From Phyto melanocephala (taxonomy: Eukaryota > Arthropoda > Insecta > Diptera > Rhinophoridae), in assembly GCA_941918925.1 (NCBI GenBank), contig OW799233.1, positions 10,036,001-10,100,000 on the forward strand: a DNA stretch of 64,000 nt, given 5' to 3'. Position 1 is the stretch's first letter. Each line of letters starts with the position of its first letter. Positions 5,034 to 64,000 of this stretch are shown here, piece by piece. The translations under genes and the position numbers were made by a program. The notes under the pieces are model-generated. The model saw only the letters and a list, made by a program, of their open reading frames with translations. It ran no database searches and was not told where the DNA came from.

Positions 5034-5402
5034 AGTTCGAACATTTCATAAACTACTTTAATAAAGGGTGGGCCAAAGTTCAACATAAGATTTAAAAATA
5101 AATAAGTTTTTCGTTCAAATATAACTTTTTTCAGTATATATAAATAACAACTGGAGAATAGACAAGAAAGAGAGAGAGATTTACAACTAAACAAATATTC
5201 AGAATAAAAGATTTTTATTGTTTAAGTCAACGAGCTATTATTTTAACACAAAGAGTATATCGTCGACATTTTAAGGTCAGAATTTCGCCTCTGAAGCAAT
5301 GATGTGTTGCTTAGTTTATCGTCATAATGTTCAAACTATTATTCTTGTTTCATTTACTTTGTATCATAAAATAAGTTTCACTTCTTTACTTTTATTTAAA
5401 TA

Positions 5403-5782
5403 CTAGAACAGTTAGGTGCGCGTTGCTACGCCTATTAATGAATAAAATTGTATTCTGAATTTAAATGGAATATCAAGTGCCAAAAGCTAAAAATTATAAC
5501 TTTTTTAATGGGCGTGGCACTGCCCACTTTTATAATCACAAAATTATTTAGTCATGACAGCTCAATATGTGTGCAAAGTCTCTGAAAAATCGGTCAAGTG
5601 CAAGTAGCTAAAACTGATAACTTATTTTTATGGGCGTGGCCCCGCCCACTTTTTTTCACCCATAAACACTCCCTGGTATGTGTGCAACAACTTGCCAAAG
5701 TTTGAGTCCAATCGGTTTTACAGTTTCGGAGTCTGTAGCTAACACACACACACACACAGAGTTTCACTTTTATATATATAGA
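5403..5782 (-). mobile_element. Non-autonomous Helitron, copy 1
   Basis: Read on the minus strand it begins TCTATATATATAAAAGTG, runs through a GT microsatellite and ends with a GC-rich region followed by CTAG and then T. TC at the start, CTAG at the end, no inverted repeats and no target duplication are the Helitron signature. The interior carries repeated blocks around GGGCGTGGC-CTGCCCACTTT. The same sequence recurs at 47530-48021 and 63498-63868. No Rep/helicase coding sequence is present. Confidence 0.8.
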
Positions 5783-14157: not shown

Positions 14158-15170
14158 AAAAACAAGTAAAAGTGCTATATTCGGCCGTGCCAAATCTTAT
14201 ATACCCTTCACAACGTGTAGTCATGCAATAACAATTGTTTGTATCACTATTCATCTCATATGAAATACGTACATACATATAAAAAATATACCTATATAAA
14301 AACATCCCAATGTAAAATTATAAATTTACGTATGTATGTTAAAAAAAAAATAAAAAAAAATTTTTTTAAAAAATTAAAAAAAAAAAAAAAAATTTAAAAA
14401 AATAATGAAAATATAAATAATAAATATAAAACAAAAAATAAATAAAAAATAATTAAAAAAAAAATTAAAAAAAAAAATAATAAAAATATAAATAAAATAT
14501 AAAAAATAAAAAAAAAAATAATTAAAATATAAATAATAAATATAAAAAATAAAAGAAAAAATTAAAAAATTAAAAAAATTAAAAAAAAATAATAAAAATA
14601 TAAATAATATATTAAATAAAAAATAAAAAACAAAATAAAGAAAAATTAAAAAAAAAATATTTAAAATATATATAATAAATATAAAAAAAAAATAAAAGAA
14701 AAAATAAAAAAATAAATTAAAAAAATTAAAAATATAAATTATATATTAAATAAAAAAAAATATAAAAAAAAAAATAAAAAATTTATTTTTGCCTCAGCTG
14801 GGACTCGATGCCACGTTTTCTCTAACCAGTATACACGTTTGTATGTATGTATATTGTTGTTGTAATAATGTTTTTGTGAAAAAAAATCGAGGTGGTCGTG
14901 GGTTTATGCTCATCTCTCAGTTGTTTATGTGCCGGTGTTTCTGATTTTCAATACCGATCTACTCCCGAATATTTCTGATATTTTAATACCTCACCCGGGT
15001 CCAGGCGATATCGGGGGGTTTCAAATAGTTGATTTCAACATACACACGGACAGACGGACAGACTGACAGAGCTTAGTCGACTCCCCTATTCATAAGCTTT
15101 CAGAAAATATATACTTTATGGGGTCGGAAATGAAAATTGTAGAAATGACAAACCTATATATACCCTTTTT
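14158..15170 (+). repeat. Family-A dispersed repeat, copy 2
   Basis: Complete copy: head with the TTCGGC palindrome region and TATACCCTTCACAACG, about 450 bases made almost only of A and T, body from GCCTCAGCTGGG, and the tail with GGACAGACGGACAGACTG, TTATGGGGTCGGAAATG and TATATATACCC. It is joined tail-to-tail with copy 3, so 14158-19530 is a large inverted repeat. Confidence 0.85.
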
Positions 15171-15277
15171 ATACCCTTCACACAGTGAAAAAGGGTATAT
15201 ATAGGTTTGTCATTCCGTGTGAAATTTCTACAATTTTGATTTCCGACCCCATAAAGTAAATATTTTATGAAAGCTTA

Positions 15278-15793
15278 CACAGTACAACACATGATTTGCC
15301 AACTCAATTCTGTTAACTGTATGTGAAATTAGACCCAAAAAGAAGAATTTCTGCATCATTCGTTTTGTCTTCTTACCTGCGATTTGAAGTTAGTATCGAT
15401 TTGAAGTTAGTACTATCGTATAGGGGAATTTATCACGTTTTAGGCCCTGTTGTTTGACATAGCTTGACAACCACTAGCCCAATTGAGTTGAAATAAATTT
15501 GAAAAAATTAAGAATTACAATTCCCTTAATCTGTTCATATATTATTTTCCTATACAAGTAACACTTTCGAAGTTAAAAATGAATGTATGAAGGGAAAAAA
15601 TTATTTTTTGCCTAAAAATTTAAATTTTTTTTTTTAAAATACATAAAAAATCCAAAATGGAAAAAAGTTTCAAGTCTAGTTATTTTTTCGCAAAGTCACA
15701 TAACCTATGAGCAAAATGAGACAAAGATCATAAAAATCGATGCACGCGTTTCGCTTTTATTCGCAATTGAGTAAATGTATGAATTTCAAAAAT
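15278..15793. repeat. Left terminal inverted repeat of the 3.63 kb element
   Basis: Matches the right TIR in reverse complement from the outer CACAGTACAAC to the inner GAATTTCAAAAAT. Only scattered substitutions are seen, plus one small length difference just inside the terminus. Confidence 0.9.
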
Positions 15794-15944
15794 CAGTTAT
15801 AGCCACCACCCTTAAAATAAAAATATAAATTAAAAAATTATCATGCAAAAAAAAACTTTATTTATAAAAACTTAATGAAAATAAAATAATATGCAATTAA
15901 TACGCAATTATAATATGCATAAAAACAAAATTTAGAACATTTTT

Positions 15945-17907
15945 TCAATTATTGGCAATATCCATCCTTGTAGAAGTTGACGCTTGTGATTCTGATGATC
16001 TTGTTTTCTTCGTAGGTTGTTCATATTCATGGTCTGAGTCTGTATCGTCATCCGAGATACACATACTATTCAAGGGCGTGTTTCTTTCACTGTGTCCACC
16101 AATTTCAATGTCTTCATCTTCGGTGCTTTCTTCAAACTGCATAATTGTGGAACTCCACCAACAAACCTCCGCAAGCAATGCATCCAATTTTTTGCTTTTG
16201 AACTGCTTTTCAAATGGCATGGTCACCTGGTGGAACCTCTCTCCTTGTTCGTCTGATTCCTGAGGTGATTGTGCCAAAAAAGTATCGAGGTGGTGGTGCA
16301 AGAAATGCAATTTCAGCGTCATGGATGCACCGATTTTTTCGAAATAAAACAGCAACCTGTCCACTCGTTGCTGTATCTCTTCTCTCTGGACACGGTTCTT
16401 TCCTAGGACGCCTTCTATTACTTCTTTCAATGCGTTCCATGCATGTTGGTGGTCGTGATGCTCTGAAAGCAAATGTGTGAAAGAATCACTTTTGATCAAT
16501 TTCCGAATATCAGGTCCATTGAGAATACCTGTTTTAAATACATAAGAAAAACGAAAAAATTATTGGTAATGCGAATGTATAGAAATTAACAAATTTAGAT
16601 ATGACAATATTGAAATACAGAGTACGATACGTACCGTTTTTAATTTTTTCATCACTGAGTTTCGGAAAGATGGATTTCAAACAGCCAAAGGCGCCGTTAA
16701 CTTTTTTGACCACCACTTCAACGAATTTCCCAGCTATTCCCAGTTTCATGTGGAGCGGTGGCAACAAAATATCATCCAGGTCCTTTATCATAGGTTCATT
16801 GCGTAATTTTAATTGTTTGTTGAGCTCGGGAGTTCTTCCTTTCCAATCTTTACATTGATATTGATTTACTTTGTATCGTGAATCCCAATTACAAAGGAAG
16901 CAGAAGTATTTTGGATATCCGCCCTTTTCTATAATCCCTTGTAGTATGTTGAACACCTTCAGATCGCAACAAATGTTCCATTTGTGTTCATCGTATTTGA
17001 TTTTCTTCAAAATTTCGCCCAATGCTTCATACGTTTCCTTCATAGTTGTGCTGAATCCCAATGGAATGCATGGTTTTTTATTTTTTTTGTGCAGCAGCAC
17101 AGCCTTCAAACTAGTAACTGAACCATCGATGAATAAACGCTAGTCGCCAGCGATATAATCCATTCCCAATTTTTTCACTAAACCTGGGATATCATGGCCG
17201 TACGTGAACGTATTTGCTTCGTCAACGGAATAAAATTTCTGAAAATCAGCTTGGCGTTGTCGGTATGGTGTTGCGCTGACATTTTTCTGTGTGAGTTTTC
17301 TTCTCTTCAAAAATGATGTCAGCCATTCGGAGTCGTGTTGTGATAGTCCCAGCTTGGCCACAATGTAATCCATTTCGATTTGTGGTAGCGGTTGTGGTGC
17401 ACTATTTTCAACATCGGGTATCCAATCAGCATCATCCAAATCGGTCGGATTGGTGAAAACGGTTGCGGCTAGCAGGGACACAGTATCCGCACTCGGAGGT
17501 TTAGGTGCATCGGTATCAGCAGGGCGTTGCACTGGAAGTGTGGCAGTAAATGCAGCAGTGTATACTTTTGTTTTCAATTGTTGTCTGTTTAATCCAGGAC
17601 GAAAATTTATGCATGCATAGCACCTGGATTCATCATGTCCAGTTGTGTCTTCCACCCAAATTACTGGCTTCATAAAAGATAACTTTCTACTTTTTCCGTG
17701 AATCCATTTTAGAAGGGTAGTATAACAACTGTTGCACACTGTGTTCGGCGTAAAATTTGCTCCACTTAAATCTGCTTCATCGAAATAATTACAATACGCG
17801 GTTTTGCTCAGTAAACAAATTTGTTCGATCTTTTTTCTGTATTTTCGGACGATATGACCACAAACGTAACAATATTCATCCAAATATGGGCACTTGTTGT
17901 TTTCCAT
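15945..17907 (-). pseudogene. Transposase-like gene with one intron and a single nonsense codon
   Basis: The start ATG is at 17907. A 106-nt intron (16529-16634, GTACGT...AACAG) joins two exons of 1273 and 584 nt, 619 codons including the stop, with the frame kept exactly. N-terminal CxxC pairs at 13/16, 58/61 and 96/99 suggest zinc binding. The core has FIDGS (Asp261), CCDLK (Asp315), a CFLCNWDSR zinc pair (Cys336, Cys339), PPLHMKLG (His386) and SDEQGERFH (Glu518 or Glu521). These are plausible RNase-H-fold D-D-E residues with a C2/H insert. The C-terminus is acidic, then basic and Ser-rich, which suits nuclear localisation. Codon 256 (17142-17140) is TAG where the family has Trp in the D-W-R-L-F-I-D phrase, a one-base change from TGG. 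I recognise the family as common, usually uncharacterised proteins of Hydra, arthropods and fish; transposase function is inferred. Confidence 0.85.
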
Positions 17908-18381
17908 ATTGATATATTTTATGTTTTGTTGTTATTCACTTTTAAAAAACTGGAGAAAAATCACTTTTACTGTTCGCGTTCGTCGGCACTGGCTGAATGC
18001 CAAAAATCGATCAATGCACACCTATAAATACTACGTATTTTTGAATATTTTACTTCCAGGTACTTATAAATGGGCGCATATTTTAAGGGCGGCTGGCTAT
18101 ATACCTGATTCAGCACTTGTACGTTTCAAACTGTGCAAAACTTTCAAAATAATGACCACCCTTAATTGTGGGTGCAATTTCTGTAAAAAAATCATATAGG
18201 TAGCCACCGGAAAAACCAAAATAATAAAAAGGTCCACTTTCCGTTTAATTGTCCACGTACATTTATTACCGCAATCATAAAAATCAAATAACCTTTTGTT
18301 TATTCCTTTTTTTTTAATTCTCAGAATCATGAAAAAGGTGTCAATGTTTTCTCCAAATAATGTTGTGCATATCTCGAGCAA
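17908..18381 (-). promoter_or_regulatory. Upstream region of the transposase-like gene
   Basis: This 474-base stretch between the right TIR and the start codon must hold the promoter and 5' leader. Several TATAAAT-like or TATATA-like strings occur on either strand, but I cannot choose one. The open frame on the minus strand at 18097-18435 crosses into the TIR and has no recognisable protein. Confidence 0.3.
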
Positions 18382-18909
18382 ATTTTTGAAATTCATACAT
18401 TTACTCAATTGCGAATAAAAGCGAAACGCGTGCATCGATTTTTATTATCTTTGTCTCATTTTGCTCATAGGTTATGTGACTTTGCGAAAAAATAACTAGA
18501 CTTGAAACTTTTTTCCATTTTGGATTTTTTATGTATTTTTAAAAAAAAAAAATTTAAATTTTTAGGCAAAAAATAATTTTTTCCCTTCATACATTCATTT
18601 TTAACTTCGAAAGTGTTACTTGTATAGGAAAACAATATATGAACAGATTAATGGAATTGTAATTCTTAATTTTTTAAAATTTATTTCAACTAAATTGGGC
18701 TAGTGGTTGTCGAGCTATGTCAAACAACAGGGCCTAAAACGTGATAAATTCCCCTATACGATAGTACTAACTTCAAATCGATACTAACTTCAAATCGCAG
18801 GTAAGAAGACAAAACGAATGATGCAGAAATTCTTCTTTTTGGGTCTAATTTCACATACAGTTAACAGAATTGAGTTGGCAATCAATTAACTGAAAAATGT
18901 TGTACTGTG
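18382..18909. repeat. Right terminal inverted repeat of the 3.63 kb element
   Basis: Reverse complement of 15278-15793. It is about 12 bases longer, mostly because of extra sequence (TTTTTCAGTTAATTGA region, reversed) directly inside the terminal 12 bases. Confidence 0.9.
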
Positions 18910-19530
18910 TTATGAATAGGGGAGTCGATTAAGCCCTGTCAGTCTGTCCGTCTGACCGTCTGTCCGTGTGTATGTTGAAATCAACTTTTTGAAGCCCCCC
19001 GACATCGCTTGGACTCGGGTGAGGTATTAAAATATCAGAAATATTCGGGAGTAGATCGGTATTGAAAATCAGAAACATCGGTACATAAACAACTGAGATA
19101 TGAGCAAAAACATACGACCACCTCGATTTTTTTTCACAAAAACAACATTACAACAACAACATACATACATACAAACGTGTATACTGGTTAGAGAAAACGT
19201 GGCATCGAATACCAGCTGAGCCAAAAAAAATTTTTTTTATTTATTTTATATTTTCTTTTTAATTTTTTTTTTATTTTTTATTTAATATATTATTTATATT
19301 TTTATTATTATTTTTTTTTTAATTTTTTTTTTTTTTTAAATTTTTTTTTTTTTTTTTTTGTTTTGTATTCATTATATATATTTTAATTATTTTTTTTTAA
19401 AAAAAAATTTTTTTTTAAAATTTTTTTTTTTTTTAATTTTTTTTTTAATTTTTTTTATTTTATTTTTTTTTAACATACATACGTAAATTTATAATTTTAC
19501 AATGGGATGTTTTTATATATGTATGTTTTT

Positions 19531-20310
19531 ATACCCTTCACACAGTGAAAAAGGGTATATATAGGTTTGTCATTCCGTGTGAAATTTCTACAATTTTCAT
19601 TTCCGACCCCATAAAGTATATATTTTCTGAAAGCTTATGAATAGAGGAGTCGATTAAGCCCTGACCGTCTGTCCGTCTGTCCGTCTGACCGTCTGTCCGT
19701 GTGTATGTTGAAATCAACTTTTTGAAGCCCCCCGACATAGGTTGGACCCGGGTAAGGTATTAAAATATCAGAAATATTCGGGAGTAGATCGGTATTGAAA
19801 ATCAGAAACATCGGTACATAAACAACTGAGATATGAGCAAAAACCCACGACCACCTCGATTTTCTTTTCATAAAAACAACATTACAACAACAACATACAT
19901 ACATACAAACGTGTATACTGGTTAGAGAAAACGTGGCATCGAATCCCAGCTGAGGCAAAAAAATTTTTTTTTAAATTTTTTTAAAATTTTTTTTTTTAAT
20001 TTTTTTTTTATTTTTTTTTTATTTTTTATTTAATATATTATATATATTTTTATTATTATTTTTTTTTATTTTTTTTTTTTAATTTTTTTTTTATTTTTTT
20101 TTTTGTTTTATATATATTATATATGTATATAATAATTTTTTATTTTTTAATTTTTTTTTTAAATTTTTTTTTTTTAAATTTTTTTTTTATTTTTTATTTT
20201 TTTTTTGTTTTTTTTAACATACATACGTGAATTTACTGTTATTGCATGACTACACGTTGTGAAGGGTATATAAGATTCGGCACGGCCGAATATAGCGCTT
20301 TTACTTGTTT
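19531..20310 (-). repeat. Family-A dispersed repeat, copy 4
   Basis: Complete copy on the minus strand, starting with the tail hairpin ATACCCTTCACACAGTG and ending with the head palindrome and TTACTTGTTT. The middle is a T-rich tract. The 107-codon minus-strand frame at 19635-19958 is shared almost residue for residue with copy 5, as expected for recent repeat copies, and does not show a gene. Confidence 0.85.
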
Positions 20311-20448: not shown

Positions 20449-21125
20449 CTAAATTTGGAAGTAAGTTTGCCTTTAATATGACGTAGAAACCTCCGTAATT
20501 TCATCAATTAAAAAGAATTGTGAACAATTAACGAAGCAAAACAATGACCTTAAATACAAATTCGTTTATTAAATAATTTTTTAAAAGCCATTAAGAAGTG
20601 AAAAACTATAAAAGAAGATGTGTATGGGTATTTTGAGCTCTAAACTTTAGCCTATTTTCAAGGAAATTTTATTTTCGAATAAAAGCCTTTTAGAAATATT
20701 TTTAATTCGAAAACATAGTTCTTCAATTTTATTCGTTAATCTGGAAATTTTAGAAATACGACTTGGAGGCATAAACATTACGTATTATCGAGGTTTACCT
20801 GTACCTGACTTTACTTAAATTATGACCATCTTTGATTGATAAAAAACTTTGCTTTTAAAGCGTCGAAATTTATTTTATTTTTTTGTGATTACGCATATTA
20901 AGTCGAATATGTGCTTAATGTGAACACAAGTAACTTTAATAAAAATTATATTATTTTGTGATTTTTTTATCTCACTGACTTGTACTTTTTTTTTTTCTTT
21001 ACAGGTATGTTAAACCATTATTAAATCTTGTTTGCATTTACATCTGAGGGTAAGATAATAATTTACAAAATTAAATACTCGTTTTAATTAATATTAAAAT
21101 ACAAAACAATCAGCGTTCCACTTGT
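20449..21125. other. Non-coding stretch
   Basis: AT-rich single-copy-looking sequence. No gene or repeat end seen. Confidence 0.6.
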
Positions 21126-21950
21126 TATACCCTTCACACAGTGAAAAAGGGTATATATAGGTTTGTCATTCCGTGTGAAATTTCTACAATTTTCATTTCC
21201 GACCCCATAAAGTATATATTTTCTGAAAGCTTATGAATAGGGAAGTCGATTAAGCCCTGTCAGTCTGTCCGTCTGTCCGTCTGTCCGTCTGTCCGTCTGA
21301 CCGTCTGTCCGTGTGTATGTTGAAATCAACTTTTTGAAGCCCCCCGACATAGGTTGGACCCGGGTAAGGTATTAAAATATCAGAAATATTCGGGAGTAGA
21401 TCGGTATTGAAAATCAGAAACATCGGTACATAAACAACTGAGATATGAGCAAAAACCCACGACCACCTCGATTTTTTTTTCACAAAAACAACATTACAAC
21501 AACAACATACATACATACAAACGTGTATACTGGTTAGAGAAAACGTGGCATCGAATCCCAACTGAGCCAAAAAAAATTTTTTTTTAATTTTTTAAAAAAT
21601 TTTTTTATTTTTTTTTATTTTTTATTTAATATATTATTTATATTTTTATTATTATTTTTTTTTTTAATTTTTTTTTATTTTTTTTTTTATTTATTTTTTT
21701 TTTTATTTTTTTTTGTTTTATATATGTATATTATATATATAATAATTTTTTTTTTAAATTTTTTTTTTAAATTTTTTTAAAAATTTTTTTTTACAATTTT
21801 TTTTTTTTTTTCGTTTTTTTATTTATTTATTTTATTATCCCGTATTTTATATGGGATGAATGGTGATACAAGCAACTGTTATTGCATGACTACACGTTGT
21901 GAAGGGTATATAAGATTCGGCATGGCCGAATATAGCACTCTTACTTGTTT
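21126..21950 (-). repeat. Family-A dispersed repeat, copy 5
   Basis: Complete minus-strand copy. The GTCTGTCC unit in the tail is expanded to several tandem GTCTGTCC/GTCTGACC repeats (about 21261-21310), more than in the other copies. The head palindrome reads GGCATGGCC with one change. Confidence 0.85.
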
Positions 21951-26185: not shown

Positions 26186-26864
26186 AACAAAGTAAGAATG
26201 CTATATTCGGCCGTACCGAATCTTATATACCCTTCACAACGTGTAGTCATGCAATAACAATAGTTTGTATCACCATTCATCTCATATGAAAATCGTACAT
26301 ACATTTAAAAATTATACATATAAAAAAAATAAAAAAAAAATTAAAAATAAAAAATAAAAAAAAAATTAAAAAAAAAAATAAAACTGATATAAAAAAAATA
26401 AAAATAATAAATATAATAAAAAAAAAAAATATTAAAAAATTAAATTAAAAAAAAAATAAAAAAAAAAATAAAAAAAATAATAAAAATATATATAATATAT
26501 AAAATAAAAAATAAAATAAAAAAAAATTTTTTTTTTGGCTCAGCTGGGATTCGATGCCACGTTTACTCTCACCAGTATACCACGTGTGTTGTTGTTGTAT
26601 ATTGTTGATGTGTTAAAAAAAACGAAGTGGCCGTGGTTTTTTGCCCATATCTCAGTTGTTTATGTACCGATGTTTCTGATTTTATATACCGATCTACTCA
26701 CGAATATTTCTTAAATTTCAATACCTCGCCCAGGCCCAGGCGATGTCGGGGGCTTCAAAAAGTTGATTTCAACATACACACGGACAGACGGTCAGATGGA
26801 AATTTCACACGGAATGACAAACCTATATATACCGTTTTTCATTGTGTACCATTTGAAAGGTATT
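26186..26864 (+). repeat. Family-A dispersed repeat, copy 6, tail deleted internally
   Basis: Head and body are as in copy 2. The tail jumps from CGGACAGACGGTCAGATGG directly to AATTTCACACGGAATG, so the CTTTCTGAAAATATA and TTTATGGGGTCGG blocks are lost. The terminal hairpin is changed (ACCATTTGAAAGGTAT). Confidence 0.8.
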
Positions 26865-28262: not shown

Positions 28263-28974
28263 AAGTAGTTCTACATAAATCTTTATATTTATCGTGCTAT
28301 TTTTTCTGTTTTACTGTAAGTTTTCTATATTAAATTAAATAACAAAAAAATAAAAAAAAATCGTAAACTCTTTTAACGTAACGTTAAAAAAATGTTAATG
28401 GTTGTTGGCAAATCGCAATGGCAACAACAATAAAAATAAATGTAAGGAAGTACATACATACATTCATACATACATGCAAAAACAAATAAACAAAATTAAA
28501 AATAGCACGTTTATCGATTGAAAATTTAGTGCATTTTATTGAAAAAATAGTTGTACTGCTCATAAGTATGTCAAGCAATTTGACGCTACCGTTTTTTGCA
28601 ATTGGGCCAAAATTGTTGGGATTTCACAATGCCACAAGCATTAGAATATTAAAAATCTACTTTTCTTTGCTCTATATAAGGGCAGTTAAAAGGCAATTGA
28701 TGACTTCTGTTTTACATCCCATTACAAAATAATGAGTTAAAGGAACTTAAAAGGAAGCAAGCACTTACCACACTTGCTTATTTATATGTAGGGATCAAAT
28801 AATTTCTTATCACCCTCGCTTATAAATAGGCATTCGCATAAGTATTTACTTTTATAGCATTAAATAAAAAATTGATTTAATTTCACAAATAACCCATTAA
28901 TTTTATAGACCTACAGAAGTGGTTCAGTTTTTTAAAAACCAAAATTCAGTTTCTTTATTCAGCGATACGTTTAA
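28263..28974. other. Non-coding stretch
   Basis: Contains a CATACATACATTCATACATAC microsatellite near 28452. No gene recognised. Confidence 0.55.
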
Positions 28975-29985
28975 TTTCTATAATATTCATTTCCGACACC
29001 ATAAAGTATACATTTTCTCAAAGCTTATAAATAGCGTAGTCGAAATTTTTGTGTTGGTTGAAATCAACTTTAAGAAGCCCCCACCTGTTGAAAAGACCGG
29101 TATGTGGTATTAATATTTTAAAAATGCTAGGGAATGAATTGTTATTAAAATCCAGCATAATCGTTCCATAACTTTTTGAGATATGAACTAGTAAACATGA
29201 CCGCCTCGTTTTTCCCATATTTTTACCACAAAAATTATAACGTTTCAGCTCTACAACAATATATAGACTTGTTTGTTACTATTTGTAGGTACGATATTCC
29301 TCTAGGGCTATTAGTAAAATATTTTGGAAAAATCGGTTAGTAACCGGCAAAGTTATAGGCAATAATTATTTAGAAAAATATATTGTCTTTAGTAATCATG
29401 TTTCTAAAGCTGCTAATTAGCTTTTTGTTAATGCTAGCAATCTAAATTTGAAACCTCGAAACTCGAAAATAAAAAAAAAACTAGCAAAAAGGTTTGAAAA
29501 TAACTGAGATATAAGCACCAAAATACAAATTATTCGGTATTTTTTTTTTTCAAATTTACCAAAAAAAATTTTCAGCTTTTAGAGAGGTTCAATAATGAAA
29601 TCAAATAAAAATACTGGATTAGCAGAATACAACATACTAAAGTAGTAAAATCGTGACCGCCTATACAAAATGGCGTAAATTAATGCATATGTTGATCAAA
29701 TTTAATATATCAAAAATATAGCCCCATCAAATTATATTCTACATTGGTACCAGACAATAGGACTTGAGCCGTATAATGCAGTAAACTATGAATCAACTGA
29801 AATCCAAGATGTCCTCTTAAACAATATGGCGAACAATATGGGTCAAATATAGTTATTATGGATTTTTTCTATTCAACCCGGACATTATTTGTATCAAATT
29901 AAAGGGTTTAAACAGTAAAATACGACATGCTGTGAAATGTATAAAAATCCAAGATGGTGTCCGAACCAAAAAGGCGGATTAATTT
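28975..29985 (-). repeat. Old family-A relic with long body, near complete
   Basis: On the minus strand the tail is at 28980-29110 (ACACCATAAAGTATACATTT, GAAATCAACTTTAAGAAG), followed by TATCTCAAAAAG-type phrases. The body blocks GGTTAGTAACCGGCAAAG, ATGGCGTAAATTAATGC and AAGATGGTGTCCGAACC come next. A foldback element begins about 35 bases beyond. Confidence 0.65.
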
Positions 29986-32230: not shown

Positions 32231-32282
32231 ACACAATCAAACACTTAATATGTTTTATTTAGCATAAAAAAACAAAGTCTTA

Positions 32283-32932
32283 AGGTGAATTCACCCATTT
32301 GTTCTGAACAAAAATTTTTCCGGAGAATAACATTTTTTACTGAGAGTTTTCTGAAGAACGATTCACCCATTTCAGAAAATTTGTCCGAAAAAACAAAGCT
32401 GCCATATAATATAAAAATGCAAACAGTTGTACAAAGTGGCAGCACCGCTAGCAAACTATGTAAACAAATACAAACGTAAATTATTTCATTTAAATATATG
32501 TGAAGAAAATGTCGGATAGAAGAAAACTAAAATTATTATTTTTAATTGAAGTGCATAAAGTCAATTTGTTTGCAAAAGAAATTTATAAAAAAAAATCGAA
32601 AATAAAAAGAGTTTTTTTAATTCTTCTATTAATTTTTGAGCAATATTTTCATTAAATTCCATTTTAATTGTTAAATTTCGGCAAAAACAATTTTTGTATA
32701 ATAAATGTACTGACACTGTGTGATGTGGCAACCAAATTCAATTTTCATGTAAATATTGAAAAAAAGTGGCATCCCAATTCAGTTTCTTCTGAACAAGAAA
32801 TAAAATTAAACCAAGAAATTCAAGAAAAAACTTTCTGAACAAAATAATCTCTCTCTCTCTCAAAAGTAAAACGTGAAACTCAATATAAAAAAAAATTTGT
32901 TCTGAACTAAAATTTTATGGGTGAATCCAGCT
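32283..32932 (-). mobile_element. PIF/Harbinger-like MITE, copy 1
   Basis: Ends AGGTGAATTCACCCAT and AGCTGGATTCACCCAT (reversed); TTA precedes the left end (32280-32282) and follows the right end (32933-32935). The same 650-base element lies inverted at 34707-37143. On the minus strand an ATG at 32662-32660 begins the same MEFNENIAQKLIEELKKL reading as copy 2, cut off after 18 codons by a deletion. Orientation is given for that residual frame. Confidence 0.8.
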
Positions 32933-34739: not shown

Positions 34740-36451
34740 CAGTGATGGAAAAGTTGTTACGACCGTACTTTTTTTGATACTATTTCATTTGAAAAAATAC
34801 CGTGTTACTCCTCTGTAACATTTGATACTCTCAGTGATACGTCTAAAATTTAAAACCATTGATTTCTTAAATTCATCTGTTTTAGCATTTCCCCTTCATC
34901 ACTTGTATTTTAGAAAATGGCAACTCTAGTTCTTATTATGTCTTCTTATTTTGTTTAATTATTACCGATATTTCTGATTTTTGTAAAATGAATTATTTTT
35001 CGATAGTGCTTGATGAGAGCACTGATATAAGCATCAACTAAAACTTGGTGATTGTTATTAGAACTTTTAATGGACAATGTCGTGATCGATTTTTAGGTTT
35101 AATTAATTTATTAGATTTAATTAATTATTTAGATGTCAGCTCATCAAGTGACTAATTTGAAAGTACTTTAAAATTTTTAGAGCTATGCAATATACCTTTA
35201 AATAATATAATCGTTATTACAACCGACAACTGTGCGGTCATGATGGGCTCCTTGAATGGTGTGCATGCAAAGTTTTAAGAAAAAATTCCTCACATTTTTA
35301 CAAACGATTGCATTTGCCACATACTAAATTTAACATCATCCGCTGCATCGAAATATGGAATACCGATTAAAATTGATAAATTTATAAAAGACAAATTTCC
35401 ATTTTTGCAATAGCTCAAGTATAAGGGAGAAGTTCACAACATTCCAAGAGTATTTCGGTGCAGCAACCAGGTGGCTTTCACGGGAGGTAGTAGTTAATAG
35501 AATTTTGGGGCAATGGGAGCCGTTGAGGTACTATTTTAAGTTAAACGATTATGAAAGGGATTCAAGAAATGAAAGGATCGAATTTATAAGATCCGGATTT
35601 TTTGATCCAGTATTCAAAATGACCTTTTTATTTCTTCAACACGTTTTAAAGATCATAAGTTCTTTTATTCTATTAAACGTTTTGTCTGGTAGAACTAATA
35701 ATATTGTACCACTTCTGTTAAAAATGTTTCCAAATGAAAGGCAAAATTTTGAAAATATATACTCTCAGTACAGGGCATTGGCGGATGTTGAAGGAGCTTA
35801 AGCCTTTGGTAAATGAAAATATTTGTAGTTTTTGGTCTAAAGTGGCTAAAACTAAAAACTCTTTGGGCGAGTATATGTTTTCCGACATTTCGAAAATTGC
35901 AAATGGAATTTTATCTTTTCCTCACTCCTCTGCAAATGTAGAGAGGATTTTTTCATATCAAAATCTAATAAAAACCAAACAAAGAAATAGGCTTAATGTT
36001 GATACTGTATCAAGTCTCATTCAGACCAAAGATTTATTGAAATCTAAAGACTCCTGTTGTTATAACTTTGACATATATGTATAGATATATCTAATAAAAC
36101 AATGTCAAACAAATTGTAGTTGCTGTAAACTTTATTACTTTTGATCGCGTATTATAATTATTTACTTATGTTCCTGTTCAATTGGCGCTATTTATCTAGG
36201 GGCTATTTCAGTTTAAAGTGATATACCTTAAAAAGTACAAAAGAAATTTAAAAAATGTTTTGTTTATAGGTAAAATTAACTTTCTATGTATTGATTTATG
36301 GTTTTTGTTAACTTTTTGTTTTCATAAAGATTTTTTTACTCTTTAATGAAAATTTAAAAAAAGAAATAACGATTTGTTACTCTTGAGGTTAAAAAAGTAC
36401 TCTCAAAAAAATTTGTTGATACCGAAATGAAAATCTCATTTCCCAACACTG
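34740..36451 (+). mobile_element. hAT element, 1.7 kb, with decayed transposase
   Basis: Terminal inverted repeats CAGTGATGGAAAAG and CAGTGTTGGGAAAT (reversed) show the CAGTG-TGG start usual in hAT elements. GTTCAGAA is duplicated exactly at 34732-34739 and 36452-36459. It sits inside the Harbinger-like MITE and is therefore younger than that copy. Confidence 0.92.
34988..36084 (+). pseudogene. hAT transposase, frameshifted and interrupted
   Basis: Readable blocks in order: SIVLDESTDISIN (first acidic catalytic block), NLVIVIRTFN, ITTDNCAVMMGSLNGVHAKF (second), NDCICHILNL (C/H motif), NRILGQWEPLRYYFKLND, then in a second frame the C-terminal dimerisation region with ILSFPHSSANVERIFSYQ and IKTKQRNRLNVDTVSSL. 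Stops lie near 35037, 35153, 35277 and 35412, and a frame change occurs near 35780. The two longest open pieces are 35505-35801 and 35734-36084. The family's role is cut-and-paste transposition; this copy cannot supply it. The N-terminal BED-type zinc finger is absent, so the element is also 5'-deleted internally. Confidence 0.88.
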
Positions 36452-36692
36452 GTTCAGAACAAATTTTCTTTATATTGAGTTTGATGTTTTACTTTTGAGA
36501 AAGAGAGAGAGATTATTTTGTTCAGAAAGTTTTTTCTTGAATTGGTTTAATTTTAATTCTTGTTCAGAAGAAACTGAATTGGGAGGCCACTTTTTTCAAT
36601 ATTTACATGAAAATTGAGTTTGATTGCCACATCACACAGTGTCAGTACATTTATTATACAAAAAATGTTTTTGCCGAAAATTAACAATTAAA

Positions 36693-36830
36693 ATGGAATT
36701 TAATGAAAATATTGCTCAAAAATTAATAGAAGAATTAAAAAAACTAGGAAGAGAATGTTTGTATGACATGAGCAATAGTGCATACAAAAAAAATTATTTA
36801 AAACAGGGTTTTCGATTTTTTTTTGTATAA
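36693..36830 (+). pseudogene. Residual N-terminus of a lost Harbinger-type accessory protein
   Basis: An ATG opens 45 codons reading MEFNENIAQKLIEELKKLG and then RECLYDMSNSAYKKN before entering non-homologous sequence. The pattern of an initial Leu-Ile helix, Cys-Leu-Tyr-Asp and then Tyr-Lys is like the beginning of MADF/Myb-SANT-like domains, which accompany PIF/Harbinger transposases. That resemblance is judged by eye on a short piece. Copy 1 has the same first 18 codons. Confidence 0.45.
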
Positions 36831-37146
36831 ATTTCTTTTGCAAACAAATTGACTTTATGCACTTTAAAAATTAAAAATAATAATTTTAGTTTTCTTCTAT
36901 CCGACATTTTCTTCACATATATTTTAATGAAATATTTTACGTTTGTATTTATTTACATAGTTTGCTAGCGGTGCTGCTACTTTGTACAACTGTTTGCATT
37001 TTTATATTATATGGCAGCTTTGTTTTTTCGGATAAATTTTCTGAAATGGGTGAATCGTTGTGCAGAAAGCTCTCAGTAAAAAATGTTATTCTGTTATGTT
37101 ATTCGGAAAAAATTTTGTTCAGAACAAATGGGTGAATTCACCTTAA

Positions 37147-39055
37147 GTTACCGGTATTGTTTCAAACTTTTTACATTGTAGTTAAACAATTTAGGCATTA
37201 TAGCTGCTGGCTGTGATAAATATTTTTTTTTTTACAAATAAGATAAAACCTAATAAATGATTTGAATTATGTCTTAAAGAATATGTTGAAATGTCAATCA
37301 AAATTTGCGGTTAATGTGCACATCTATGAGAAAAACAAAAAAAATAATAATTTTTCAAAAGCTTTTAAAATTATAATCAGTTTAAAGAAATAATAACTAG
37401 AAGTATTTGTTTTAATTTGTTGTATGTTTTTAAATTGTCTGGTGGTAATTTTAGTTTAAAATTTTAATTTAAAATTTTAATATAAAATTTTGTATGATAA
37501 TGTTTGTAAATGAATGTTAACCACAAAAATATATTTAAACAATAATTACGTACAATAAGAATTTAAATTGTTTATTTGGATGTTTTCCACAACCACACAC
37601 AATTCTAGATAATAATTAAGGACATTCACTTACAACCATTTATGTTATCAAGCTAACCACATAACACATATACACATGACGAGTAATTAAGGACATTCAC
37701 TTACCAATTTTTATTTATCAAAAAACAATGAAATTGTAATAAAAAAAAAAATTGTTTGTGGTTTTTTTTCAAAGTAATTAATTTTATGTTAAAGCATTGC
37801 ATAACAATTGCTTATTTTTTTATCTTCAAGACTATAAACTATTTCTCATTAGTTATACAATTAAAAAAAATAGAAAAAAAGAACAATAATTACTGATATC
37901 TTCGAGGTTTCTTAGTGTCTTAACCAAGTGTTAATGGTGCATATTGTGGTAATGAAAAATGATAAATGAGTTTTGCCGGTCGACATTATAAATTATTAAC
38001 AAAAATCTAATGCTTTCACTCTTAGTTTAATTCCAACTCACTGTACAGTGTACGTACTACACCGTATTTAACAAACATAAATAAATACACACACAAATGC
38101 ATATGTGTTATTGTGTGCCTATTTTATGAAAATATTATTATGTTGAATTGATATCTCTCACGTAATAATTTGTACAAGAAAAAAAAAATAAAGAAATAAA
38201 TCAACAAATAATTAAACAGACAGTAGTTGTGGTTGTTAGCAATGCTAACAATGAATGCACTAATAGAATAGAGTCTAATTAAGACTAGAAATATAATAGA
38301 AAAACTGTATTTATGTATGTGCAACCTCGCAGTCATAATTAAGTCTGTTCTTTTTTTTTTTTTTTTTGAAGATTTGATAACTAAAACAAGGAAAACCCAC
38401 ATAATTGCTTTACTTTCATCGTGTTGGTTTTTCTCTCACTTGCAGTGTTGCCACAATTTTAATTTTAGTTAAAATGATAAGCTTTAAAAACATTAGTTCA
38501 TTTGATTACTCGAAAGTTTTTACAATTTTTTTTTACTGAACTTTACAGAGAAATAGATAGGGAATAGAGTAAAAGATTTCCATAAGCGTAAGGTCTTGGG
38601 AAGAAGTTAAAAAGTATGCCAGGCAAGTAAAAATTAATTTTTTTTTAACCGCAATTCATTTGATATGCAATTTCTCTAAAAAGCATAAACTCCCTCCATA
38701 TCCCATAATTTATCAGTCTTTTTATATACAACCTTAAATCTTGTTTAATGCGAATACACCTCGCTAAGGAGCTGGGGCTATCTATATCTTATTCCCTGGT
38801 TTTTGCTATGAGAATTTGTAAATAATCAACGACAGATTGGAATGTGCGGTCTAAGGAGTCCCTTAGATTTGCTTTTAGACAAGCACAATAACGTTTCAGT
38901 CTGTGGCTGTTCCTCTGCTAATCTCTAGAGCAGCATTAGCGCAGATTATTTACCCTGGTTTAACAAAAAATGGCTCTGGTACAATTGAAAAGCGATTCGC
39001 AGTATGACCCAGATTCTAAAGCATTGTTGCCTCTTACCATGCCTTAGTCGATTAC
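37147..39055. other. Non-coding stretch
   Basis: Contains a direct repeat of TAATTAAGGACATTCACTTA (near 37613 and 37684, about 71 bases apart). No gene recognised. The last 350 bases are less AT-rich and may belong to the retrotransposon remnant that follows. Confidence 0.5.
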
Positions 39056-47425: not shown

Positions 47426-47529
47426 AGTTTCAAATTTTAATGTCATGTCTCTTATGTTTATGTCATGTCATGTTTATGTCATGTCTCTTAAACGATAAAT
47501 TATTTTTTTTTTACTTTTTATTACTTTAA

Positions 47530-48021
47530 CTAGAAAAGCCCGGCGCGCGTCGCTACGCCCCTTAATGAATAAAAATGCATTCTGAATTTTAATTGAATAT
47601 CAAGTGCAAAAAGCTAAATATTATAATTTTTTTAAATGGGTGTGGCACTGCCCTAATCACGAAACTAAATAGTCACGACAGCTCAATATGCGTTCAAAGT
47701 TTCAGAAAAATCGGTGAAGTTTAAGTAGCTGAAAATTATAATTTTTTTTATGGGCGTGATACTGCCCACTTTTCTAATCAAGAAATTGTAAAGTCATGAC
47801 AGCTCAACATGTGTGCAAAGTTTCAGAAAAATCGGTCCAGTGCAAGTACCTCAAAAATATTACTTTTTTTGTGGGCGTGGCCCTGCTCACTTTTTGCCAC
47901 CCATAAACACTCCCTGGAATGTGTACAACAACTTTCCAAAGTTTGAGTCCGATCGGTTTTACAGTTTCGGAGTCTATAGCTAACACACACACACACAGAG
48001 TTTCACTTTTATATATATAGA
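47530..48021 (-). mobile_element. Non-autonomous Helitron, copy 2
   Basis: Minus strand begins TCTATATATATAAAAGTG, continues through the GT run and the GTTAGCTATAGACTCCG block, and ends CGCCGGGCTTTTCTAG followed by T. It contains three GGGCGTG-type repeated blocks, one more than copy 3, and is about 120 bp longer. The frame at 47804-48040 is a by-product. Confidence 0.85.
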
Positions 48022-49689: not shown

Positions 49690-50339
49690 CCTACATCTTA
49701 GCGTAGCCTAGATTTTTCATTCAATGTTATACGCCATTTTGCTTTACGATATCCGATGCCATTTTCGATTTTGAATTTTTACATAACAAACTGTATTCAA
49801 CAACAGCATTCATTAATACCAATATTGATGGTGTTGAAGAAGGTGCATTTTTAAATGATTTGACCCATATAAAAGGTGTTTTTTATAGAGGTATAGACTT
49901 TGAATTTTTTAAAATGCCATGAAATATACAAAGTGATAATTGTTTCAGGCTTATCGGCGTAAACTAGCGACTTTATACACATATCGCGATAGCGGCGTTA
50001 AATCGCACGATATTGGAGGTTTATACACGGATTTAAAGCGAGAAACCATGCTGTTGCCAAACGTTTCCTTCAATAAATCAATTATGTCCCGAGCAGTGTG
50101 ACATGTTGCACACCAAACCACAAACCACAAAAAACAGACAGTTAAGTTTTTTGCTTACATCTCAAAAAGGTCAAAAGCGAGTGTTCAGGATATCAATAGC
50201 ATTTTCTGATTATTATAAAAAAAATATTCTAAAAGTTGATTTCAAACAACATAAGGACATTCAGACAACGCTTAATCGACTTTTCTATTAATAAGATTTC
50301 AGAAAACATAAACTGTAAGACGTCGCATATAAAAATCAT
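49690..50339 (+). repeat. Fragments of the long-body family-A relic
   Basis: Body phrases (ACGCCATTTTGCTTTACG, AATATTGATGGTGTTGAAG, GATTTGACCCATATAAA) run to about 49875. Unrelated sequence containing AACTAGCGACTTTATACAC follows. The tail resumes at 50150 (TTACATCTCAAAAAGG, AAAAGTTGATTTCAAACAAC, ATTTCAGAAAACATAAACTG). Confidence 0.5.
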
Positions 50340-50663
50340 GGGTTATAGAAACGCTTTGTGAAGCGGTTAATCACTATTTAAACAAATTAAAAAGTGTCTT
50401 TTAGTAATAAAGGTTTTTTTGTAAAAAAAAGTTTGGGAAATTCTGTTGGGTTATAGAAACGCTTTGGGAAGCGGTTAATCACTATTTAAACAAATTAAAA
50501 AGTGCTTTCTAGTAATGAAGGTTTTTTTGTAAAAAAAAGTTTGGGAAATTCTGTTGGGTTATAGAAACGCTTTGGGAAGCGGTTAATCACTATTTAAACA
50601 AATTAAAAAGTGCCTTTTAGTAATGAAGGTTTTTTTTGTAAAAAAAGTTTGGGAAATTCTGTT
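50340..50663 (+). repeat. Tandem repeat, three units of 108 bp
   Basis: Units start at 50340, 50448 and 50556 with GGGTTATAGAAACGCTTT and end GGGAAATTCTGTT. They are nearly identical, with changes such as TGTGAAGCGG/TGGGAAGCGG and TAATAAAGG/TAATGAAGG. The spacing is exactly 108. The first unit directly follows the tail of a family-A relic. No open frame spans the array. Confidence 0.95.
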
Positions 50664-51048
50664 GGGGGTTTTTTTTAATATTGCCTCCCTTTCTATTTTA
50701 CCGGAAATGTTAGCTGCAAGAAACTGCAAATTTGTAAAAATTTTGATTTTTATTCATTCACTTTTAGGTGTTTTCTGTTCTGAAACAAAAAATATTTATT
50801 TTTATACTCGTACTCGTAACAAATCAAAAGCAACACACACATACATACATACACCCATGATATAAATTGTTTAAGTGTGTAATTATTTATTATGCATGTT
50901 TCCAAGCGCTTTTTTATAACAATTTTTTTTTTGCAATTGTTATGTCACATTGCACATTGAAATTAAATGCAAAATTGATTCACCTTGATGTGGGGTTTCC
51001 ACTTACACAGTGATTATAAGCAATTTGTGCAACAAACATTGTTAACAA
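50664..51048. other. Non-coding stretch
   Basis: No gene recognised. A CATACATACATACACCC microsatellite lies near 50842. Confidence 0.6.
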
Positions 51049-63497: not shown

Positions 63498-63868
63498 TCT
63501 ATATATATAAAAGTGAAACTCTGTGTGTGTGTGTTAGCTATAGACTCCGAAACCGTAAAACCGATTGGACTCAAACTTTGGCAAGTTGTTGTACAGATTC
63601 CAGGGAGTGTTTATGGGTGGTAAAAAGTGGGCAGTGCCACGCCCAAAAAAAATAAGTTATAATTTTTGGCTATTTGCACTTGACTGATTTTTCTAAAACA
63701 CATATTGAAGTCTCATGATTATATAATTTCGTGATTAGAAAAGTGGGCAGTGCCACGCCCATTAAAAAAAAATATAATTTTTAGCTTCTTGCACTTGATA
63801 TTCAATTAAAATTCAGAATGCATTTTTATTCATTAAGGGCCATAGCAACGCTCGCCGGGCTTGTCTAG
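63498..63868 (+). mobile_element. Non-autonomous Helitron, copy 3
   Basis: Begins TCTATATATATAAAAGTG and ends ACGCTCGCCGGGCTTGTCTAG followed by T. It carries two GTGGGCAGTGCCACGCCC blocks. Its 371 bp make it the most compact of the three and, with its ends intact, the best reference copy here. Confidence 0.9.
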
Positions 63869-64000
63869 TATTGCTAGAAGAGTAGTTACTTAGTTAAGTC
63901 CCTTTTTAAAGGCAACCGTAATAAGTACTTTAACGAGTCCCTATTTTTAAGCGAGCGTGGTAAGTACTTGCCTCCAATGATATCGCCATTTTAAAATAAT
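63869..64000. other. Non-coding end of window
   Basis: Contains GGTAAGTACTTGCCT, the inverse of the phrase at 4204-4219, so the repeat seen before the Helitron continues here. Confidence 0.45.

What the first reader, a model, noticed from the sequence alone, without database searches (positions are those of the whole stretch)
15278..18909. Near-intact DNA transposon with half-kilobase TIRs and an unclassified transposase-like gene
The element is fully delimited: TTA duplication, CACAGTACAACA termini, TIRs of about 0.52 kb and one spliced gene. The protein family is widespread yet, as far as I recall, usually annotated as uncharacterised. D261, D315 and E518/E521 with a CxxC...H insert look like a DDE catalytic core. 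I suggest a Chapaev3/CMC affinity, but TIRs this long would be unusual there. It may be a described or a new lineage.
Basis: partly seen in the sequence, partly recalled or inferred. Interest (0 to 1): 0.85.

Follow-up and report, generated by a model that had tools for sequence, protein, structure and literature searches.

The report
Chapaev3 jumping gene, long inverted ends
This is a complete-looking but disabled copy of an animal jumping gene of a known group (Chapaev3), recognisable by its ends, its insertion scar and the conserved residues of its enzyme, with an unusually placed intron and long mirrored ends but no sign of a new kind of mechanism.

Summary
The element spans 15278-18909 (3632 bp), with TTA on both sides, CACAGTACAACA...TGTTGTACTGTG ends and inverted repeats of 516/528 bp (98.2% over 504 bp). 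Two sister copies of the host repeat in the same window, and the repeat's own left arm, are empty sites with a single TTA, so the TTA is a real target duplication. The minus-strand gene has two exons, but codon 256 is a stop upstream of the catalytic residues. The protein has 868 homologs among 7094 candidates and no convincing Pfam match. The D, D, C(2)C, LH, H(4)H, E set is kept in 161 of the 164 homologs with letters at all anchors, of 200 aligned. Small novelties: the intron lies in codon 425, not after residue 75-78 as in Merrow/Garfield, and marks a sub-clade. Not tested: other genomic copies (genome search did not complete), fold (switched off), a tree with named Chapaev3 proteins.

The parts
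15275..15277 (.). left target site duplication TTA
   Evidence: read directly; single TTA in empty sites
15278..15793 (+). left terminal inverted repeat, begins CACAGTACAACA
   Evidence: 98.2% identity to the right arm over 504 bp
15380..15412 (+). tandem pair of CGATTTGAAGTTAGTA inside the TIR, 17 bp apart; possible transposase binding site (inference)
   Evidence: positions 103 and 120 of the arm
15945..16528 (-). transposase exon 2, with LKLHFLHHH (H(4)H) and E518/E521
16529..16634 (-). intron, GT...AG, 106 bp, inside codon 425 (inferred from sequence, no transcript seen)
   Evidence: same site marked in a group of relatives
16635..17907 (-). transposase exon 1: Cys-rich N terminus, D261, D315, C336/C339, L385-H386
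17140..17142 (-). in-frame stop codon 256, upstream of the catalytic residues; this copy is disabled
18382..18909 (-). right terminal inverted repeat, ends TGTTGTACTGTG
18910..18912 (.). right target site duplication TTA
14522..15277 (.). left part of the palindromic host repeat into which the element inserted
18910..19473 (.). right part of the same palindromic host repeat
19526..20235 (+). sister copy of the host repeat: empty site, junction 19637/19638
21121..21838 (+). second sister copy: empty site, junction 21233/21234

Best explanation
A full-length but coding-defective copy of a Chapaev3-type (CMC group) cut-and-paste DNA transposon, inserted into a palindromic repeat of an animal (probably fly) genome. 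A working relative's transposase would bind the inverted repeats through its N-terminal cysteine clusters (inferred). It would cut at the CAC/GTG ends with a DDE RNase H-like core whose C(2)C...H(4)H insert forms a zinc site as in RAG1/Transib (inferred from motif order), and join the element to a 3-bp staggered TWA target, giving the TTA repeats (the duplication is shown; the chemistry is inferred). This copy cannot supply its own enzyme because codon 256 is a stop, but its ends look complete, so it could be moved in trans (inferred).
For: Ends CACAG...CTGTG, 3-bp TTA duplication and TIRs. Single-TTA empty sites at 19637/19638, 21233/21234 and the repeat's own left arm. D261 and D315 in 200 of 200 aligned homologs. 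All ten catalytic/zinc/LH anchors in 161 of the 164 homologs that have letters at all of them, of 200 aligned; only 2 of these 164 belong to the window's own sub-clade, in which 29 of the 30 rows with letters at the six exon-1 anchors keep all six. PMC4079192 gives Chapaev hallmarks (3-4 bp TSD, CAC/GTG termini), C(2)C, LH, H(4)H motifs, TWA TSDs for all Chapaev3 examined there, and full transposases of 554-562 aa for Garfield and Merrow; 130 of 200 fetched homologs are 550-567 aa.
Against: The base 5' of the TSD is C, whereas PMC4079192 reports A for all Chapaev3 examined; the 3' base T agrees. The intron site differs from Merrow/Garfield (after residue 75-78 there). No named Chapaev3 protein could be compared; none of the names shown for the 200 fetched homologs is such a name. 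No significant match to RAG1 or any solved structure by profile. The D-to-Cys spacing of the window (21) differs from RAG1 (19), though 160 of 164 complete homologs have 19.
Confidence: 0.9

Rival explanations
1. A member of another CMCT lineage (EnSpm/CACTA, Mirage, Plavaka, ESTA, Transib) that shares CA..TG ends and the C(2)C and H(3-4)H motifs.
For: PMC12730594 (passages seen) states that these motifs, CA..TG ends in most cases and 2-5 bp TSDs are shared across the whole CMCT clade. One of 79 homologs matched the Pfam model RAG1_imp_bd (not the catalytic core) at E 0.0064.
Against: TTA fits the TWA rule of Chapaev3; LH and H(4)H are the Chapaev set. No transposase-core model was among the matches: 11 proteins at E up to 10 and 79 at E up to 0.01 (the 10 homologs are among them). 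That Pfam holds CACTA and RAG1 core models is recalled.
Confidence: 0.07
2. A lineage sister to Chapaev3, with its own TIR architecture and intron, not yet named (overlaps with the best explanation, which is worded as Chapaev3-type).
For: TIRs of 0.5 kb, an intron in codon 425 that marks a well supported sub-clade, C instead of A before the TSD.
Against: Ends, TSD and motifs fit Chapaev3; the intron clade joins a continuous family with single-ORF members of 550-567 aa. PMC4079192 says most Chapaev3 transposases other than Merrow and Garfield appear single-exon, so intron differences occur inside the group.
Confidence: 0.12
3. A host gene family, not a transposase, that happens to lie between inverted repeats.
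For: The homologs listed are mostly unnamed and have no precomputed Pfam domain; no other copy with TIRs was available for comparison.
Against: A precise insertion with a 3-bp duplication, TIRs at the boundaries, a DDE-type conserved set and many diverse homologs.
Confidence: 0.01

Closest known systems
Chapaev3 group: Garfield and Merrow families (PMC4079192)
   Same: CAC/GTG ends, TWA target duplication, C(2)C/LH/H(4)H motifs, two-exon transposase
   Different: Intron in codon 425, not after residue 75-78; element 3632 bp against 2289-2455 bp for the full-length Garfield and Merrow listed in Table 1 (Conan_AC is listed at 3363 bp); C, not A, before the TSD; 618 residues against 554-562; TIR lengths of those families not seen
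Chapaev3-1_CV and Chapaev3-2_CV of Calliphora vicina (PMC3630058, passages and one section seen)
   Same: Chapaev3 elements listed for a fly genome
   Different: Only pieces up to 1075 bp are listed there; sequences not compared
RAG1/Transib (CMCT clade)
   Same: D...D...C(2)C...H(4)H...E order of catalytic and zinc residues (RAG1 numbering from PMC4914335, passages seen); D to Cys spacing 19 in 160 of 164 complete homologs as in RAG1
   Different: D to Cys spacing 21 in the window; D-D spacing 54 against 108; shorter Cys to His stretch; RAG1 H942-E962 is 20, here 14 (E518) or 17 (E521); no significant sequence match

Membership tests
Chapaev (CMC) | 3-4 bp target site duplication | tested here: met
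   TTA on both sides; single TTA in three empty sites
Chapaev (CMC) | 5'-CAC...GTG-3' termini | tested here: met
   CACAGTACAACA...TGTTGTACTGTG
Chapaev (CMC) | DDE residues with C(2)C, LH and H(4)H motifs | tested here: met
   present in the window; kept in 161 of the 164 homologs with letters at all anchors, of 200 aligned
Chapaev3 | TSD of sequence TWA | tested here: met
   TTA, rule from PMC4079192
Chapaev3 | insertion between A and T (reported regularity of the target, not named there as a hallmark) | tested here: inconclusive
   one insertion only: 3' neighbour T as reported, 5' neighbour C, not A
Chapaev3 | transposase groups with named Chapaev3 sequences in a tree | not testable with these tools
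   no named Chapaev3 protein among the 200 fetched homologs; no Repbase held
Garfield/Merrow families of Chapaev3 | exons of about 78 + 478-484 aa | tested here: not met
   here 424 complete codons + 194 residues (against Table 1)
Any family in Pfam-A | match above curated cut-off | tested here: inconclusive
   window protein: 0 matches at E up to 10; 10 homologs: none above its cut-off, best zf-AD at 20 bits against 28; 79 homologs (these 10 among them): zf-AD in 5, best E 0.00049, and three models in one member each; bit scores and cut-offs not shown there

The most novel reading that the evidence does not exclude
The codon-425-intron clade is a distinct Chapaev3 sublineage with half-kilobase TIRs whose N terminus (C-x2-C-x40ish-C-x2-C, weakly ZAD-like, plus a further CxxC) is a ZAD-type zinc module, linking insect ZAD domains to a transposase family.
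Probability: 0.2. Interest if true: 0.45.

Novelty: new member of a known kind. Interest (0 to 1): 0.25.

Why it matters
It gives a cleanly delimited Chapaev3-type element with in-window empty sites, and points to a large transposase family for which the Pfam scans made here (80 different proteins) gave no convincing match, so that related insect proteins are likely to stay unlabelled. The intron offers a subfamily marker. The biology is otherwise expected.

Tried and rejected
Sequence search of solved structures with exon 1 gave nothing; with the 79-member profile, only chance-level matches (best E 0.2, Scarecrow-like; a RAG1 chain at E 2.6 against profile positions 34-107). Relatives in viral contigs (exact DNA pattern) and in bacterial/archaeal genome contigs: none confirmed. 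A second homolog search, made to reach a named bracovirus Garfield protein, showed none in its best 120 of 2385. Single-strand folding of a sister host repeat was not informative. Papers on long TIRs in Chapaev: two listed, passages of one seen, not informative. ZAD with transposase: four listed, none opened. No Rfam family and no tRNA in the window. Row e5 was placed off the junction and dropped; row e3 (junction 786/787) has the TTA but an altered right side and is not counted. The intron labels are crude: 38 rows lacked the downstream motif, 3 of them with long continuations were taken out, and 3 rows with inserts at the site were added; some ORFs may end for other reasons, and P0033 shows a probable retained intron but was labelled continuous.

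Full report
What is there. The element lies at 15278-18909 (3632 bp) between two TTA copies (15275-15277, 18910-18912), with ends CACAGTACAACA...TGTTGTACTGTG. Its arms are 516 bp (left) and 528 bp (right) and match at 98.2% over 504 bp; the outermost 12 bp match as well, and a short stretch between does not align. Each arm carries a tandem pair of CGATTTGAAGTTAGTA (for the left arm; seen in both arms), a possible binding site by inference.

The insertion is shown inside the window. The flanks form one palindromic repeat (arms 14522-15095 and 18910-19473; inner hairpin 15093-15277). That repeat has further copies in the window. Two of them run straight through the site with a single TTA (19637/19638 and 21233/21234), as does the repeat's own left arm read in reverse. 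A fourth, at 786/787, has the TTA but an altered right side. So the boundaries and the 3-bp duplication do not rest on the inverted repeats alone.

The gene. On the minus strand, exon 1 (17907-16635), a 106-bp GT-AG intron (16634-16529) and exon 2 (16528-15945) give 618 residues with the internal stop counted as one. The intron is inferred from sequence and from relatives, not from a transcript. Codon 256 is a stop just before the RLFID motif that holds D261. A short stretch near residues 23-34 is out of frame: another frame of the same DNA gives residues like those of P0001, a protein without organism name that is 93% identical over 69% of the query. The copy is therefore disabled; relatives without this stop exist, P0001 among them.

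The protein family. A search found 868 homologs among 7094 candidates, and a second with a moth homolog found 2385 among 6805; only the best 120 of each were listed, 200 different proteins in all. Organisms named among them are a beetle, two gall midges and two moths. Pfam gave nothing for the window protein at E up to 10 and nothing above a cut-off for 10 homologs. Of 79 homologs, 5 matched zf-AD at E up to 0.01, best 0.00049; single members matched Nop52, RAG1_imp_bd and EntA_Immun. In an alignment of the window with 200 homologs, D261 and D315 are kept in 200 of 200. All ten anchors (D261, D315, C336, C339, L385, H386, H499, H504, E518, E521) are kept in 161 of the 164 homologs that have letters at all of them; the 36 others lack letters at one or more. 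Those 164 hold only 2 rows of the window's own sub-clade, because most of its ORFs end at the intron; there, 29 of the 30 rows with letters at the six exon-1 anchors keep all six. Conservation does not choose between E518 and E521 (163 of 165 and 164 of 166). Six N-terminal cysteines (13, 16, 58, 61, 96, 99) are kept in 186 of 187 rows with letters there.

Comparison with RAG1. PMC4914335 (passages seen) gives D600, D708, E962 and zinc residues C727, C730, H937, H942. C(2)C and H(4)H are shared in order. The D-to-Cys spacing is 19 in RAG1 and in 160 of 164 complete homologs, but 21 in the window and in 21 of the 34 sub-clade rows counted, with 19 in 9, 15 in 3 and 24 in 1. The D-D spacing (54 against 108) and the H-E spacing (14 or 17 against 20) differ. 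This supports a CMCT-type core by motif order, not by a significant sequence score.

Comparison with Chapaev3. PMC4079192 (abstract, sections 7, 14, 15 and passages seen) describes CAC/GTG ends, 3-4 bp TSDs, C(2)C, LH and H(4)H, and TWA TSDs between A and T for all Chapaev3 examined there. The element fits these except for the A: the base before the TSD here is C. The intron differs: Garfield and Merrow with both exons listed are split after residue 75-78 (Table 1). In my set, 38 of 200 homologs were labelled as ending or carrying an insert at the window's intron site. An 87-row tree was built from columns upstream of the intron only (window, the 38 labelled rows, 28 close unlabelled rows and 20 random ones; 87 of 201). 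In it, 35 of the 39 labelled rows, window included, fall in one 36-row clade with 99% SH-aLRT; four lie outside (P0041, P0061, P0080, P0120), and one member of the clade, P0012, reads through. The tree needs five label changes against a shuffled mean of 28.8.

Novelty. Chapaev3 is a described group and is listed for a fly (PMC3630058, passages and section 21 seen). In six searches with Chapaev terms I saw nothing on Chapaev3 TIR length, but most of the listed papers were not opened, and Repbase reports and most subscription papers are not held. I file it as a new member of a known kind, with an intron position that marks a sub-clade.

Limits. Whether the long TIRs and the TWA duplication hold for other copies is therefore untested. 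That the host is a fly is my inference from the style of the repeats (recalled).

Noticed in passing
397-902, 14522-15277/18910-19473, 19526-20235, 21121-21838, 26186-26847, 28974-29043: A family of palindromic, AT-rich repeats with a GTCTGTCCGTCTGTCCGT-like part, 73-97% alike between aligned pieces. PMC3630058 describes an unclassified 488-bp palindromic repeat (Unknown 6) in Calliphora; its sequence was not compared.
   Followed up: partly
32279-32907 and 36452-37147: A second pair of long inverted copies (92-94% alike in pieces) flanking a region with a hAT C-terminal fragment. Each arm seems to start CTTAAGGTGAATTCACCC and to end near GGGTGAATCC, so these may be two copies of a MITE in opposite orientation rather than TIRs of the hAT.
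   Followed up: partly
35722-36081: hAT dimerisation domain fragment (PF05699, E 3.5e-08, above cut-off), among short open frames.
   Followed up: partly
50339-50666: 108-bp unit repeated three times in tandem at 96%.
   Followed up: no
47529-48021, 5399-5782, 63498-63872: Another dispersed repeat with inverted copies at 83-87%, overlapping a 121-bp tandem duplication at 47653-47894.
   Followed up: no
17907-17611 (transposase residues 13-99, exon 1): C-x2-C-x40ish-C-x2-C module with weak ZAD (zf-AD) similarity, E at or below 0.01 in 5 of 79 relatives, plus a further CxxC at 96/99; all six Cys kept in 186 of 187 rows.
   Followed up: partly
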